NCBI GenBank assembly: GCA_947184155.2
Contig: CAMXCT020000264.1
Span: 62,001 to 126,000 of the forward strand
DNA: 64,000 bases
From: Cladocopium goreaui
Lineage: Eukaryota; Sar; Dinophyceae; Suessiales; Symbiodiniaceae
Direction of reading: 5' to 3'
This document shows, one piece after another, positions 1 through 62,339 of the stretch. The position numbers and the translations under genes were made by a program. Within the stretch, counting starts at the first letter, position 1, and every line of letters begins with the position of its first letter. The notes below the pieces were generated by a model, which worked only from the letters and a program-made list of their open reading frames with translations, did no database searches and was not told where the DNA came from.

Positions 1-2100
1 TTGTCAAGTTTGTCTAAGATCCTCTTGAGGTCGCATGCAAAAGCAACCCGAGCAGCAGGCGAGGAATCAGGAACTCTGCAACCCCCACCATTACCGCTAA
101 AAAATGCCCAAAATGGACGCAGCTAGAGCGAAAGTAAAGTGAAGATAGGACTTGAGAGCTTCAAGTTCCTGCGTTCAAGATAGCAACATAACCACAGATC
201 CGGTTGCATCGCCAAAAAATGTGGTAAATGATGACTTTTTCGGGCAATAATCATAGCAACTAGATGGTTTTTCAAGTGGATCCAAGATACATTCCAGGGA
301 CAGCCGGACATGAAGAAACAGAACCAGGCACTGCCAGGCAACAAAATGAAGAGAACAAACGGAAGTTGTACCAAACACAGTACCTGAAGTACCACCAAAG
401 TGCTTTGTTGTTTCCATGTTTCCATGTTTACATGCAGCTGCATTCAGACTGAGATAAGACTTTGGCATGAATGACATCTATACTTGCAAGACGCCACGCA
501 GTAGGGCAGTTTTTGGTTCTCCATGTTCAGGCTCTGCTTCAAGCCTCTCCATGCTCTGTACAGCCCCTCAGAGAGGATGGGACCTCGTTTGAGACTAAAG
601 CGATTCAGCTGTCACTTGCGTCACATGATTGTCATTGCATGGCCTTCGTGTAATCATGTCACTTGCTTCACTCATCGTCACTCTCACTCTCTTGACTAAG
701 CTCCTCACTGAGGATCGCAATTTTCACGGACCTCCCCCTGGGCTGCCATCAGGATAGTCGAAAATCGAAAATGGTCTTGCAAGAAAGGAGAGTTGCTGGA
801 AAACAGCAAGCATGACAAATGGAAGCACATGGAAGTTTTAAGTACGGGACAGTCGCGCTTGCCACACTGGCTGCTCCACTTCTGTGTGCCAAGAGTCCAA
901 TTCTTGAACTCCTGAAACTTGCAGAATGTCTGCATTGTGGCATACTGACTCATACTGACTGGTTGACGAAACATCATCGACTCTCACCAACTCTCACCTT
1001 GTCATCATATCTTACCCACAACTGTGAGCCTCCCTCTCCACATCTCTCCACATCTCTCCACATCTCTCCACATCTCTCCACATCTCTCCACATCTCTCCA
1101 CATCTCTCCACATCTCTCCACCACGGCACCTGGACTTCCGCCTCTCAGCCTCTTGTAGCGGATGCCTTAATCAGTTCGAAGAACTTTGAAGAACTCAAGT
1201 TCCATCTTCCAGCTGTCATTCCTTGTCATGCTGGGTACCTGTTGGGTATCTCAAGTTATCTCAAATTATCTCCTGCTTGACATCAAAAGTCTTTACCTGC
1301 CGACATGAACTTGTTCAGGCGGTCACGTAGGATCATCCACTTTCAGCCACGGAGTCTCATCCTTTGCTATGCGTAAGACTGACACTTCTGACACGAAACG
1401 AAATCGCTGGAGCATCGTTTGTCTATCTTTTGATCATTTTGATCATTTTGATCATTTGCAGGATGGTCTGTCTGCTGACATGTTCTCCCACGCCTGCACT
1501 CGAGGAGATGGAAATCGCTTCCCATCCAGCCAGGGAGCATCAGCAAGGGTAGTCCAAATAGGAATCGGTGTGTCCTCACACAGCAAAGTTCGACGAATGT
1601 GTCCATTTGTCAATTCCTCCAGATATCTTCAGATATCTGCAGTTATCTCCAGATGTTTTTGATGATACAGACATCTGCGTCAGGTTGCTAAAATCAGGCA
1701 AAACTACGACAGCCGGGCCCCAGTAGGTCCTGCCCAAAAAGTGGCAAACGAATTCCATCTGGAAAGCTGTCGCCGATACACTTGGCCGGTCGCAGGCCTG
1801 CAGTGGTCAAATACCCCAAATGATTCATCCTTGCTTGACAAACTGATTCAACGTGATTCAACATGATTCAACTCCGTCAGTTGTTTCTGAAAGAAGGCAA
1901 GAAAGCAACACCTAGCAACCAGGCACAAACACACACAATCCGTCACAACATGTCACAACCCTACTTGTTACACTTTGCCTGCTGGGATTGAAGATACCAG
2001 CGTACCACCTCACAAAAGCTATGCCAGCTTCCGGGATCTTCTCAAATGTCCGGTCGACCTTTGAAGAACCAAAATATTGTTATGATATTCAAAATTATTC
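1..2100. other. Left edge: no firm gene, two weak minus-strand exon candidates
   Basis: A stretch near 928-855 lies between TTTCAG|G and CCC|GTACTT on the minus strand and reads EFKNWTLGTQKWSSQCGK. Another near 1740-1680 follows GGGCAG|G and reads TYWGPAVVVLPDFSNLTQ. Neither matches a family. The rest is non-coding in appearance and includes the decamer array at 1041-1120. Confidence 0.25.
1041..1120. repeat. Decamer tandem repeat, 8 copies
   Basis: The unit CATCTCTCCA is repeated eight times without error, with one degenerate copy on its left side. Non-coding. Confidence 0.97.
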
Positions 2101-2479
2101 AAATATTACATAATATTACTGTATTTCAATAATTTTCAAAATGTATTTCAACTAAGTCTTCATTCCTTGACACTTTATTTCACAATGCAATCAAGGCTTG
2201 ACATGAGTCATCGCTCTTTTTCGCAAGGTCAATGAGTCAATGAAACGAAGAAAACCTTCGACTTTCTGTACAGGTGAAGTCCCCTCAAACCTTCGGCCGC
2301 CAAATCCGCTGTCCTTGCAAAGCACAAGAGTCAAACCTCCAATAAAATGTCCATGGTTGAACCACTTGACGACTTTTAAAGCAGCAAAAGATGGTTGTTT
2401 GATGTTGTTTGTTTCCCTTTGGTCCTGATCCTCGGCCTCCACTTCCTTTCGCTGGTAGTGGTTGGTAGTAAGACTTCTT

Positions 2480-60300: not shown

Positions 60301-62339
60301 ACTTTCCTTCACTTTCCTTCACTTTCCTTCCTTATTTCATATGCTTTCATTATGCTGTCATTGTGTTTGTTCTATGTTGTTCTCCTGTCTCCAAAGGTTC
60401 CAAAAGCGCCAAACCTCGAGCAGCTGAGTGATGTGAATATCTGGCTGCAGCTTTGCAGCGAAGCTCCTAATGACACAGCAACGTGCACAAACACAGCATG
60501 TGGTGGCAGCATTTCTGACATGTCTGACATTTCTGACATAAACATACATAAACAAGAATAATAAAGATCTGTGACATTTCTGGTCCTTGTCGGAGTGTGC
60601 AAAACAGCAAGTCGCCTTTTGGCAATCGCTGCCTTGGATGTCAAACAAATGCCCTGCTTGATACTTGTTGCTCTCCTTCTACAATCAGCATAATCAGCAT
60701 CATAGTTTTCCATTTATAACATTTTATAACCGTGTTTGCACCAGACCATCCACAATTACAAGCTGATTTTGTTGTAGAAACACAGAAGGTTTTCTACTCA
60801 TGCAAGACTTTACCCAAGTGAATTTGAAAGTCAGCCAAGAAGCCGTTGCAAACACGCGTTTTGTACTTTGCTGGATGGTAGGAGATCTCTCCCTGTCGCT
60901 GCAGGAGCATGCTTGGAAAGTCAAGATGTTTGAGACCACAAGGGAGATCCAAAAACCTTATACAGTGTTACAACATGTCAAGACCGGAACAGCTCTTCTA
61001 ACCCTTTTGAACCCCTTTGGTTTGTCAGAACTCTGGAAGCTCTTCCAATGCTCCGCACCTTTGAATGTGCCAAAGTACATTGGTCTCCTCTGGGACACCT
61101 GACAGCCCAAACTTTCTACACAACATGTCACCATCGAATTTCAGCACAAAATGTCACCAAACAAAATATGCAAAAACATGTCCCATCTGCTGATTTTAGA
61201 GGAGGAAATCATTTCCTCTGCTTTTAACATCCACATGTTTGGTGTCAGGTGATCTCTTTTCCATCCTGACGAAATTAGACTACGTACAAACATCAAAATG
61301 TGGTGCCGTTGGAATCTATATCTAGAGTTGATACTGTAGACTGTAGATTGGTCGAACTTCAATGACTGGACATCAGTTTGCATTTATTCTCTAGTTTCTG
61401 AAATCCCGCTGTGGGTATTTTCTCAAACGTTTGCCCTTTTGCCCTCTTGTTTTACATTGCTAAGTTCGCAGCTTGCTTGGTTGCGAGATCCACTTGCATG
61501 GAAGCCTTAGGACTGTGGAGAATGATTTGTGACGGATGCAACGGTCGAGGATCACTCGAGAACTTCGAAAAAGATCTTCTTGTGCAGATCGATCGCTCGT
61601 GTGACGGCTCTCCGTGTCCAAGAAACTCCCAATATCTCAACGTCCCGTCTGGTCCAATGGGTGACCGCCGCCGCTGACCCTACCAGAGTGACAGCTCAGC
61701 AAAACGCAACATCGTGCGACATTCAGTTGAAACAAAAGGTGAAAGAAAAAGTGGAAGACTTGAAAAGCTACACTTCCTGCGGCCTAGCAGGGACCAAAGG
61801 AAAGTGCAATGAGGGGCGATCAAACAACATCAAACAAGACGGTTTCATACCAGAGCCAACGCCAACATATGTTTGTTTCAGCTTCAAACTGCTTTGCCTC
61901 AAAGTGGAAGTTGAAGCATTGCATTTTCGGCTTGTGCAGCTCACAATGCCCAGCCTGTCCAAGAACCAACCAAACAAGCTGAACCAGCTGAACCAGCTGA
62001 AGCCCGTAAGATCCGCAAAGCAAAGCATTGCCGTGTTGGCCGTGTTGGACCGGTTGGATCATTGATTGGTCCGTTTTCGTTTCCCAAGGCCTGGAAGTCC
62101 GCGCACTTTTCTGTCCGGCAATATCTGGCAAGGGAAACTCTCGAGTTGCAGTCTGTACAACCATCTTTAAACACATATTTCAATCATTCTCAATCACGTT
62201 CAATATATTTCAGTTCAATCCGTCTCCTGTTGTCATGTTGTTGTCGTTTCGTGCATCATTTGTGGCGCTTCTCAACTAGATGGATTTTCTGGGGACAATC
62301 GATCGCCAATGGCTCTGTTTCAGAGCGCCTAATGAACTT
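54309..62339 (-). CDS. Unkempt-like multi-CCCH zinc-finger protein (many short exons)
   Basis: Ordered exons reproduce the successive zinc fingers of the Unkempt family, which bind RNA. 62139-62091 reads YCRTEKCADFQ and joins in phase to 61954-61898 (AGHCELHKPKMQCFNFHFE). Next come 60898-60836 (YHPAKYKTRVCNGF), 60632-~60580 (DCQKATCCFAHS), 59169-59057 (KLCPFFHNPRDRRRPPG), 58321-58280 joined to 58015 onward (FCATFPK + VETCQRGDLCAFAH, a perfect C-x8-C-x5-C-x3-H), 57239-57187 (DFFTRRFKT), 56995-56947 (LWCPYGTQHGWHECLY), 56552-56510 (FHQDWRRRPELGYS), 56393-~56320 (EPCPEF), 55871-55826 (RCPNGLRCRFAHGSK), 55081-55050 (EQLYHPLYYKT), 54723-54689 (MPCTDWASSGT) and 54432-54309 (CPRGPQCAFFHGPEEQR). A possible N-terminal exon is 62339-62280 (SSLEKFIRRSETEPLAID). 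Donors include GT (AC|GTTGGG twice) and GC. The true 5' and 3' ends and a few internal exons are unresolved. Confidence 0.8.
54836..54890. repeat. 11-mer tandem repeat, unit TACAAATAATG
   Basis: Five copies in an intron of the CCCH gene, between exons 55081-55050 and 54723-54689. Confidence 0.93.
55187..55745. repeat. Long AT simple repeat (ATATA / ATAAT)
   Basis: About 550 bases nearly without G or C, built of TATAATATAATA blocks, in an intron of the CCCH gene between exons 55871-55826 and 55081-55050. Open frames across it are poly Tyr/Ile and not genes. Confidence 0.97.
59011..59058. repeat. Decamer tandem repeat, unit TTCAGCCTGT
   Basis: Five copies, adjoining the donor end of the CCCH exon 59169-59057. 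Confidence 0.94.
59330..59600 (-). CDS. Possible extra exons inside the CCCH gene
   Basis: On the minus strand a stretch near 59427-59350 lies between an AAG|G acceptor and a CAG|GTG donor and reads FDMVSELWQRVVRKKAIPDS. A second stretch near 59600-59550 reads LHPEVFPC. Both sit between CCCH-bearing exons and follow their strand, so they are plausible members of the same transcript, but neither has a diagnostic motif and the phases were not proved. Confidence 0.3.
59950..60060. repeat. AT simple repeat
   Basis: TATATATTTATTTATTTATA-type sequence in a CCCH gene intron. Similar shorter AT runs occur near 4860, 8085-8150, 15000, 25855, 27410-27460, 39850-39930, 43175 and 51290-51350. Confidence 0.9.
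60290..60332. repeat. Decamer tandem repeat, unit ACTTTCCTTC
   Basis: Four copies, pyrimidine-only on the plus strand, in an intron of the CCCH gene. Confidence 0.94.

What the first reader, a model, noticed from the sequence alone, without database searches (positions are those of the whole stretch)
1041..60332. Tandem duplications with a unit of almost exactly ten bases recur throughout the non-coding DNA
Independent sequences at many places are duplicated or triplicated with period 10, not as one dispersed family. Examples: CATCTCTCCA (1041), GGATCGGTCA (3881), TGTTCCAACA (7743), CTGTTACTAT (8822), ATACCATCCA (9979), AAGACGTGCC (10181), TCGGAATGAT (10841, with decayed copies before it), TTGTTGTGTG (13330), AGGCTGGAAC (18111), ATCATAATTG (24711), CTCGAGTCTT (29921), AATATCTCAC (30541), CCGTTGTCCC (31880), TACAAGACAT (34721), CGTTCCTCTT (42181), GTTCCGAGTT (43301), GATGATCTAA (49773), TGAAACATTT (52161), CATGTTTCTC (52505), TTCAGCCTGT (59011), ACTTTCCTTC (60291). 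Periods 9 and 11 also occur (for example 15122, 43495, 49097, 53868, 54836); other lengths are rarer. Ten bases is about one helical turn, so a duplication mechanism tied to helix geometry, repair or DNA packaging in histone-poor chromatin is conceivable.
Basis: seen in the sequence. Interest (0 to 1): 0.75.

Follow-up and report, generated by a model that had tools for sequence, protein, structure and literature searches.

The report
Ten-base tandem duplications pervade non-coding DNA
The non-coding DNA sampled from this genome, likely a dinoflagellate's, is full of mostly unrelated short sequences copied head to tail with a unit sharply peaked at ten bases, likely the scars of staggered DNA breaks that were filled in and rejoined, which would be an unusual way for a genome to grow.

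Summary
Confirmed. All 21 listed period-10 sites and the 5 period-9/11 sites are there. Window loci with a tandem match at lags 8/9/10/11/12 number 27/73/151/28/5, with no separate peak at 20-21 or 30. TRF finds 50/121/31 loci at periods 9/10/11, against about 1 each in Markov sequence. Non-coding-like stretches of other contigs show the same; long-ORF stretches have several-fold fewer.

Units are mostly different (107 distinct of 111 window loci). About half of the isolated two-copy cases have no microhomology, close to a simulation of blunt duplication. Longer exact units (8-12 bp) are more AT-rich than their flanks, unlike simulated ones. Terminal inverted repeats inside 8-13-bp direct repeats are not above control. 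Paralogues lack one 10-bp unit at one array and 57 bp at another; closer paralogues show no 8-11-bp gap at all.

Best reading: homology-independent tandem duplication, likely fill-in and end joining of breaks staggered by about 10 nt, then slippage growth. The narrow size differs from the broad tandem duplications of rice. The mechanism is inferred, and no second species could be compared.

The parts
1034..1121 (.). period-10 array, 8.8 copies (CTCTCCACAT)
   Evidence: exact run 78 at lag 10; the doubled unit also occurs on other contigs
3877..3902 (.). period-10, 2.6 copies (GTCAGGATCG)
7742..7769 (.). period-10, 2.8 copies (GTTCCAACAT)
8822..8851 (.). period-10, 3.0 copies (CTGTTACTAT)
9978..10006 (.). 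period-10, 2.9 copies with decay (AATACCATCC)
10167..10193 (.). period-10, 2.7 copies (TGCCAAGACG)
10818..10870 (.). period-10 array: 3.4 exact copies (TGATTCGGAA) with decayed copies before it
13340..14061 (.). long interrupted period-10 array of TGTTGTTGTG (low complexity)
   Evidence: runs of 226, 67, 89 and 226 at lag 10; TRF 13076-14220, period 10
15121..15148 (.). period-9, 3.1 copies (CTGCCATGT)
18105..18134 (.). period-10, 3.0 copies (TGGAACAGGC)
24711..24768 (.). period-10 array, 5.8 copies with variants (ATCATAATTG)
29921..29953 (.). period-10 duplications (CTCGAGTCTT / GAGTCTTCTG)
30296..30316 (.). period-9 duplication (GAGGTTTTG), one copy in the paralogues
30539..30582 (.). period-10 array (ACAATATCTC), about four copies, one 10-bp unit more than the paralogues
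31886..31958 (.). period-10/11 array (GTCCCCCGTT), absent as an array in paralogues, which are 57 bp shorter here
34721..34750 (.). period-10, 3.0 copies (TACAAGACAT)
40119..40200 (.). period-10 array (TTTGGATGAT) that changes to period 11 (ATGGATGATTT, GTGGATGATTT)
   Evidence: similar arrays on many contigs
42179..42256 (.). period-10 array with one 9-bp variant unit (TTCGTTCCTC)
43301..43330 (.). period-10, 3.0 copies (GTTCCGAGTT)
43438..43481 (.). period-11, 4.0 copies (TGTTGATAATC)
43495..43546 (.). period-9, 5.8 copies (TTGCAACCA)
49098..49149 (.). period-9, 5.8 copies (GAAGCATTC)
49773..49815 (.). period-10 array with a variant (GATGATCTAA)
52161..52188 (.). period-10, 2.8 copies (TGAAACATTT)
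52499..52526 (.). period-10, 2.8 copies (TTTCTCCATG)
53864..53971 (.). period-9 array (AATCCGGGT), more than 11 copies
54833..54890 (.). period-11, 5.3 copies (TGTACAAATAA)
59010..59058 (.). period-10, 4.9 copies (TTTCAGCCTG)
60290..60330 (.). period-10, 4.1 copies (CACTTTCCTT)

Best explanation
The non-coding DNA sampled from this genome carries mostly unrelated tandem duplications with a unit length sharply peaked at 10 bases, likely born when the two strands were cut about ten bases apart and the overhangs were filled in and joined end to end without homology, and likely lengthened afterwards by slippage. Shown: the narrow length spectrum, the mostly different units, chance-level microhomology in most isolated pairs, very few copies separated by filler, copies of many ages, rarity in long-ORF DNA, and copy-number differences from one group of paralogues. 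Inferred: that the initiating lesion is a staggered double-strand break; that the duplex between the cuts must melt, giving the steep fall above 10-11 bp and the AT-richness of longer units; that Ku-type end joining seals it; and that arrays of three or more copies grow by homology-dependent slippage.
For: Length spectrum: isolated exact two-copy events in 172,734 non-coding bp for k = 7..13 are 51/45/55/62/20/9/6, against Markov 15/5.5/11/1/0.5/0.2/1.5.

Little microhomology: extra matching of 0..5 bases beyond one unit is 34/13/4/3/0/1 of 62 at k=10 and 28/11/4/5/2/1 of 55 at k=9. Duplications implanted at random in the same DNA give 0.55/0.23/0.125/0.048/0.025/0.010 at k=10. Slippage or flap ligation is expected to need a few matching bases at birth.

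No filler: runs of 9-12 matches number 83 at lag 10 and 2/2/2 at lags 13/14/15 in the window.

AT trend: unit AT minus flank AT in exact pairs is -0.015, +0.032, +0.068, +0.094, +0.092 for k = 8..12; Spearman 0.20, p = 1e-6, n = 580 with decayed pairs; 0.16, p = 0.013, n = 233 for exact pairs at k 7-12. Simulated implants show no trend.

Ages: lag-10 blocks of 10/10, 9/10, 8/10 and 7/10 identity number 85/220/329/632, against 4-24/16-36/95-146/432-532 at lags 13, 14, 16-19, 22, 23, 25.

Direct differences: one 10-bp unit and a 57-bp array differ between the window and its paralogues.

Machinery: a Ku match above the Pfam cut-off, though broken by stops; Ku70, Ku80, DNA-PK and LIG4 are reported from dinoflagellates (PMC6680887, passages). 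Precedent: small tandem duplications at paired-nick breaks need Ku80 and fill-in synthesis (PMC8355091, sections 4, 9, 10; PMC5730883, passages).
Against: No break, overhang or enzyme was seen. Melting explains an upper limit, not by itself the rise to a mode at 10; that needs a further assumption, for example that shorter overhangs mostly re-anneal and are ligated cleanly. Isolated exact pairs show a broad shoulder at 5-9 bp. The AT trend is not clean: k = 6-7 units are also slightly AT-rich, and decayed pairs give +0.014/+0.067/+0.116/+0.070/-0.002 at k = 8..12. Extra matching has a heavier tail than simulated: 7 of 62 pairs at k=10 match 6 or more further bases, and at k=11 only 7 of 20 have none; I read these as remains of three-copy arrays. 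No consensus is visible at the cut edges (178 edge sites, largest chi-square 12.2 on 3 df among 14 positions), so no specific nicking activity is supported. Four recent paralogues, each with internal repeats about 91% alike, show gaps of 1-2, 14 and 18-20 bp and none of 8-11 bp; with some 150 substitutions between them my rate estimate would predict about three. Short inverted repeats are also enriched (27 against 3.4 for 10-bp stems), much less than direct ones (528 against 5.4). At 7/10 identity lag 12 (629) equals lag 10 (632) in the full set. Rice duplications attributed to the same route run beyond 100 bp (PMC7971508), so the route need not be narrow.
Confidence: 0.45

Rival explanations
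1. A single enzyme with a fixed ~10-bp staggered cut (a transposase- or integrase-like activity, such as the 9-11-bp target duplications of Mutator-like elements, recalled) leaves target-site duplications whose element is lost or never inserted.
For: The narrow mode at 9-11 bp and the AT-rich units resemble a target-site-duplication length. Units carry 6-8-bp palindromes somewhat more often than flanks, 47 of 226 against 121 of 904.
Against: Direct repeats of 8-13 bp do not enclose terminal inverted repeats above control (20 seen, 28.5 in shifted controls). No clear target consensus and few spacers between copies. Arrays of 3 or more copies are common, which excision does not make. Introners of Symbiodinium microadriaticum have 4-bp duplications (PMC9860276, passages). 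The MULE transposase search did not complete.
Confidence: 0.17
2. Replication slippage alone, with a polymerase or repair system that favours loops of about 10 nt, makes and enlarges the duplications.
For: Exact arrays of about three or more copies are 0.6 times as frequent as isolated pairs at k=10 (38 against 61), far more than independent births would give, so slippage-like growth is likely in the second phase. One array shifts from period 10 to 11 (40119-40200). Some pairs have long extra matches.
Against: About half of isolated pairs have no extra matching base, close to microhomology-free implants. Ordinary slippage is expected to give a size spectrum falling smoothly from 1-6 bp (recalled).
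Confidence: 0.18
3. Primer-limited fill-in: 3' overhangs at breaks are filled by primase-polymerase alpha, and the ~10-nt RNA primer length sets the duplicated length.
For: CST-guided Pol alpha-primase makes small tandem duplications at breaks with 3' protrusions, and the authors note primers of typically 10-15 nt (PMC8355091, sections 9 and 10 read).
Against: There most duplications spanned nearly the whole overhang (43 nt or more), not a primer length. Priming opposite a pyrimidine predicts an edge bias; none stands out.
Confidence: 0.1
4. Sequence-dependent bending or packaging favours 10-bp periodic DNA, and the repeats are selected or are a by-product of that.
For: With tandem runs masked, AA/TT pairs show weak ~11-bp phasing (1.12 at lag 11, 0.955 at lag 17).
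Against: The match signal is made of exact copies of arbitrary sequence, lies at 10 rather than 10.5-11, and has no independent peaks at 20 or 30.
Confidence: 0.05
5. Assembly or library artefact.
For: Transposase-based libraries can copy 9 bp (recalled).
Against: Eight long-ORF stretches of the same assembly have 1/9/3 TRF loci at periods 9/10/11, against 35/83/31 in 11 non-coding-like ones. Many copies are diverged.
Confidence: 0.02

Closest known systems
Homology-independent short tandem duplications from paired-nick or staggered breaks (rice, human, mouse; Messer and Arndt 2007, Vaughn and Bennetzen 2014, Schimmel et al. 2017 and 2021)
   Same: Exact head-to-tail copy of arbitrary sequence, no microhomology needed.
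   Different: In rice, where events above 50 bp were studied, tandem duplications are about 70% of events at first and decline past 125 bp to 5% by 200 bp (PMC7971508, passages); here most units are 8-11 bp with a mode at 10, and period 8-12 arrays cover 11.7% of the window. The 2007 and 2014 papers were seen only as cited; the 2014 one is not held.
Minisatellites / VNTRs
   Same: Arrays of three or more ~10-bp units that vary in copy number.
   Different: Here two-copy loci are the largest class (107 of 202 period 9-11 TRF loci round to two copies) and most loci have their own unit; the unit length has one narrow mode.
Target-site duplications of DNA transposons and introners
   Same: Short direct repeats of fixed length.
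   Different: No enrichment of inverted-repeat termini between the copies; in the passages I saw, Symbiodinium introners have 4-bp and Amoebophrya introners 3-5-nt repeats (PMC9860276, PMC7789003).
SPO11 double cuts
   Same: Helical ~10-bp periodicity in the distance between cuts.
   Different: Their spacing starts at about 2-3 turns and recurs at later turns (PMC12918824, passages); here there is one mode, at one turn.

Membership tests
Homology-independent tandem duplication by break fill-in and end joining | Inserted sequence is an exact copy of the neighbouring stretch | tested here: met
   few copies separated by filler
Homology-independent tandem duplication by break fill-in and end joining | No microhomology beyond chance at the junction | tested here: met
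   for most isolated pairs; a minority with long extra matches exceeds the simulation
Homology-independent tandem duplication by break fill-in and end joining | Dependence on Ku/LIG4 end joining | not testable with these tools
   only a Ku match in two places, 34 bits against a cut-off of 25, with three stops inside each
Homology-independent tandem duplication by break fill-in and end joining | Derived state is the duplicated one | tested here: inconclusive
   paralogues lack units at three sites, but they form one recent group, so polarity is not proven
Homology-independent tandem duplication by break fill-in and end joining | Broad length range as in rice (typical, not defining) | tested here: not met
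   mode at 10, few above 12
Transposon target-site duplication | Terminal inverted repeats inside the direct repeats | tested here: not met
   20 seen against 28.5 in shifted controls
Transposon target-site duplication | Palindromic target consensus | tested here: inconclusive
   no clear consensus in 178 edge sites; circular units carry 6-8-bp palindromes somewhat more often than flanks, 47 of 226 against 121 of 904
Slippage minisatellite | Prior short repeat at the unit distance | tested here: not met
   for most births; growth to 3 or more copies is compatible
Nucleosome-type 10-bp sequence phasing | Oscillation with peaks at successive turns | tested here: not met

The most novel reading that the evidence does not exclude
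Dinoflagellate non-coding DNA grows largely through one dedicated mutational process: double-strand cuts staggered by one helical turn, filled in and blunt-joined, adding 10 bp at a time at arbitrary sites at roughly one event per 50 neutral substitutions, enough to inflate introns and spacers across a gigabase genome.
Probability: 0.22. Interest if true: 0.85.

Novelty: new variant of a known kind. Interest (0 to 1): 0.62.

Why it matters
Short tandem duplications are known, but a spectrum this narrow and this dense points to a specific, length-limiting lesion or repair step. If it holds across dinoflagellates it would offer a measurable route to their swollen introns and spacers, and a mutational signature to test against their nucleosome-poor chromatin and modified thymine. 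It also warns that alignments of non-coding DNA here may be full of ~10-bp insertions.

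Tried and rejected
Helical multiples: no primitive peaks at 20-21 or 30. Bendability: residual AA/TT phasing is weak and near 11. Transposon scars: no TIR enrichment. A fixed cut motif: none clear. Base excision at hydroxymethyluracil on both strands (idea): it would predict T (or A) at a fixed edge position; position -1 and the first unit base show no T excess, so I do not propose it. 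Indels among repeats in my own loci: mostly satellite-internal, with few clean events such as one 9-bp GGCTTCTTA copy in the L018 satellite. A first BLAST gave no rows, probably because of its gap settings. k-mer enrichment in units: mostly AT-rich words. 18S, DVNP and MULE searches did not complete. Paper searches whose listings (titles and starts of abstracts) showed nothing on 10-bp tandem duplications in dinoflagellates: (no paper); passages of PMC11453091, PMC8045281 and, for plants and green algae, PMC3887541 did not mention such a mode either.

Rows dropped: low-complexity units (period 1-6 self-match above 0.75), stretches with N, contig C1 (L009) from most counts (it is among the 8 long-ORF stretches), and satellite-rich or array-rich stretches L012, L016, L018, L027, L031, L032 from the non-coding set; L011, L014, L019, L021, L022, L023, L033 were set aside as long-ORF. 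The split was made. L023 is a copia-like retrotransposon by its reading frames (by eye), so 'long ORF' includes young elements. Sampling was not blind: 5 of the 20 contigs (C28, C168, C264, C1337, C1926) had been named, and 4 of the 5 stretches were chosen as neighbours of two duplication-rich ones; two of these (L029, L030) are in the non-coding set.

Full report
The observation. All 21 listed period-10 sites and all 5 listed period-9/11 sites are present within a few bases of the given places. They are a small part of what is there. After low-complexity units were removed and overlapping runs merged, the window has 27/73/151/28/5 loci with a tandem match at lags 8/9/10/11/12, and 12 at all lags from 13 to 44 together. 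Tandem Repeats Finder, run independently, gives 260 loci in the window, 121 of them period 10 and 202 of them periods 9-11, against about one per period in second-order Markov sequence; they are spaced almost at random, one per 312 bases, and period 8-12 arrays cover 11.7% of the window (its score threshold of 36 misses two-copy units of 8 bases or less). Single-base identity at lag 10 is 0.301 with microsatellites and longer arrays masked, where composition predicts 0.252 and lags 7 and 13 show 0.26.

Genome-wide. The window is part of contig C264 of a 1.17-Gb assembly of 6202 contigs. I read 25 further 10-kb stretches: 20 spread over the assembly, 5 of them on contigs that one search had named, and 5 chosen later, 4 of them neighbours of two duplication-rich stretches. 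Merged loci at lags 8-12 in the 24 stretches without contig C1 are 40/102/191/33/30; L018 alone gives 36 of the 102 and L032 45 of the 191. In 31 blocks of 10 kb the lag-10 excess falls with GC content (Spearman -0.46, p = 0.01) and with the share of long open frames (-0.56, p = 0.001). The excess is -0.008 to +0.005 in 7 of 8 long-ORF stretches (+0.017 in L022) and +0.006 to +0.038 in the 11 non-coding-like ones; six satellite- or array-rich stretches scatter from -0.032 to +0.082. TRF counts at periods 9/10/11 are 35/83/31 in the 11 and 1/9/3 in the 8. So this is mainly a property of non-coding DNA and not of the assembly. Long-ORF stretches include a copia-like element (L023, by eye) with none of these loci, as expected if copies build up with time. 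Over the 19 stretches of the first sample there is one lag 8-11 locus per 723 bases (260 in 188,057).

Organism. A 20-of-21 match to the dinoflagellate spliced leader (sequence recalled) lies at L012:9060, and a 15-of-15 match to its 3' part at L032:7899; one shuffled word for each gave no hit. This makes a dinoflagellate likely; the 18S and DVNP searches did not complete. Contig C1 (7.4 Mb), with dozens of kinase domains mostly in uninterrupted frames, looks bacterial.

Independence. Among exact period 9-11 loci the window has 107 distinct units in 111 loci; the other 24 stretches have 130 in 167, where most sharing comes from two units of one satellite.

How a duplication is born. In 172,734 bases of non-coding DNA (window and 11 stretches) I took exact two-copy events without a third near copy. 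For k = 7 to 13 there are 51/45/55/62/20/9/6, against 15/5.5/11/1/0.5/0.2/1.5 in Markov sequence. The right side falls about two- to threefold per base from 10 to 12. The left side is a shoulder, partly chance and partly shorter slippage events; since short exact pairs survive longer, this likely understates the mode. Extra matching beyond the unit is mostly at chance level: at k=10, 34 of 62 have none and 13 have one base, but 7 match six or more; random implants in the same DNA give 55% and 23%. At k=11, 7 of 20 have none. Slippage and flap ligation are both expected to need a few matching bases, so for most events the first step is likely homology-independent. In exact pairs from k = 8 upward, longer units are more AT-rich than their flanks, from -0.015 at 8 to about +0.09 at 11-12; decayed pairs peak at k=10 (+0.116) and fall after it. 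Detection bias does not produce this. It is what is expected if the duplex between two opposite nicks has to melt before a break forms: AT-rich stretches of 10-11 bp melt, longer ones stay paired and are sealed. Small k (6-7) does not follow the trend. Copies separated by a few bases of filler are rare (runs of 9-12 matches: 83 at lag 10, 2/2/2 at lags 13-15).

How it grows. Exact arrays of about three or more copies number 38 at k=10 against 61 isolated pairs, and 30 against 52 at k=9. With a steady-state estimate of roughly one birth per 50 neutral substitutions (164 excess pairs of 8-11 bp in 172,734 bases, lifetime of an exact pair taken as about 1/(19 x substitution rate); my inference, neutral and without contraction), a second independent hit would be more than twentyfold rarer than seen, so a copy-number slippage step is likely. 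An array that shifts from 10 to 11 (40119-40200) and the one-unit difference at 30539-30582 suggest stepwise change.

Paralogues. Window 30148-30854 and 31786-32093 have copies at about 73-84% identity on C2169, C58, C2490 and C1366. At 31886-31958 all four lack the array and are 57 bp shorter; at 30539-30582 the window has one more 10-bp unit; at 30296-30316 they have one copy of the 9-bp unit, net -6. The four copies are one recent group, so this is one comparison and the polarity is not proven. Against the rate: among these four copies (97-99% identical) and their internal repeats (about 91%) there are gaps of 1-2, 14 and 18-20 bp and none of 8-11 bp; with some 150 substitutions between them about three such duplications were expected.

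Alternatives tested. No helical multiples; residual AA/TT phasing is weak and near 11; no excess of inverted-repeat termini inside 8-13-bp direct repeats (20 against 28.5 in controls); no clear edge motif; inverted repeats are enriched far less than direct ones.

Literature. Small tandem duplications are attributed to fill-in and Ku-dependent joining of paired-nick breaks (PMC8355091: abstract and sections 4, 9, 10; PMC5730883: passages). In rice, tandem duplications are about 70% of events at the short end of those studied (above 50 bp), declining past 125 bp (PMC7971508: passages). Dinoflagellates carry Ku70, Ku80, DNA-PK and LIG4 (PMC6680887: passages); here a Ku match above cut-off is found in two places, each with three stops inside, so it is a weak sign. 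I found no report of a 10-bp mode in the listings of my searches, which cover open-licence papers only.

Verdict. The kind of event is known; its narrow size and density are not, as far as these searches show. The staggered-break origin is the best-supported reading but is inferred, and a second species is the first thing needed.

Noticed in passing
window 30883-31375: Purine-rich repeat (AGAGAAGCAGAAAAGC type) belonging to a dispersed family with dozens of copies at 77-86% identity in the genome.
   Followed up: partly
window 40119-40200: Similar 11-bp TGGATGATTTG arrays occur on many contigs, some spanning about 1 to 6 kb (C3488, C47, C232), so a few units do recur widely.
   Followed up: no
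window and 9 non-coding stretches: With tandem runs masked, AA/TT pairs keep a weak ~11-bp phasing with troughs near 17.
   Followed up: no
pooled non-coding blocks: A bump at lag 12 (0.277, above lag 11) and smaller ones at 18 and 24, unexplained; not seen at lag 12 in the window alone.
   Followed up: no
window 22747-22858, minus strand: Exon of an ABC1/UbiB-type kinase (Pfam E = 4e-8), the only domain above its cut-off among the 10 frames scanned.
   Followed up: no
L012:9060, L032:7899, window 62972 minus: Near-complete and partial dinoflagellate spliced-leader words in genomic DNA, as in retroposed genes; the 12-base one in the window may be chance, since a shuffled 12-base word also gave a hit.
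   Followed up: partly
G000 contig C1 (L009): 7.4-Mb contig with many Ser/Thr kinase domains in open frames and hardly any tandem-duplication signal in the 10 kb read: probably a bacterial chromosome in the assembly.
   Followed up: no
window 1-181 and L018:782-960: 97% identical copy about 41 kb apart on the same contig.
   Followed up: no
L037-L040: Four near-identical segments on four contigs, each holding several ~690-bp repeats about 91% alike, with recurrent 14-, 18- and 20-bp non-tandem indels.
   Followed up: partly
window 55101-55739: Long ATA/TAT-rich low-complexity stretch giving a 212-aa open frame of mostly Y, I and L.
   Followed up: no
window 22341-22452: Triplet run (TRF unit AAC) that reads as polyglutamine on the plus strand.
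   Followed up: no
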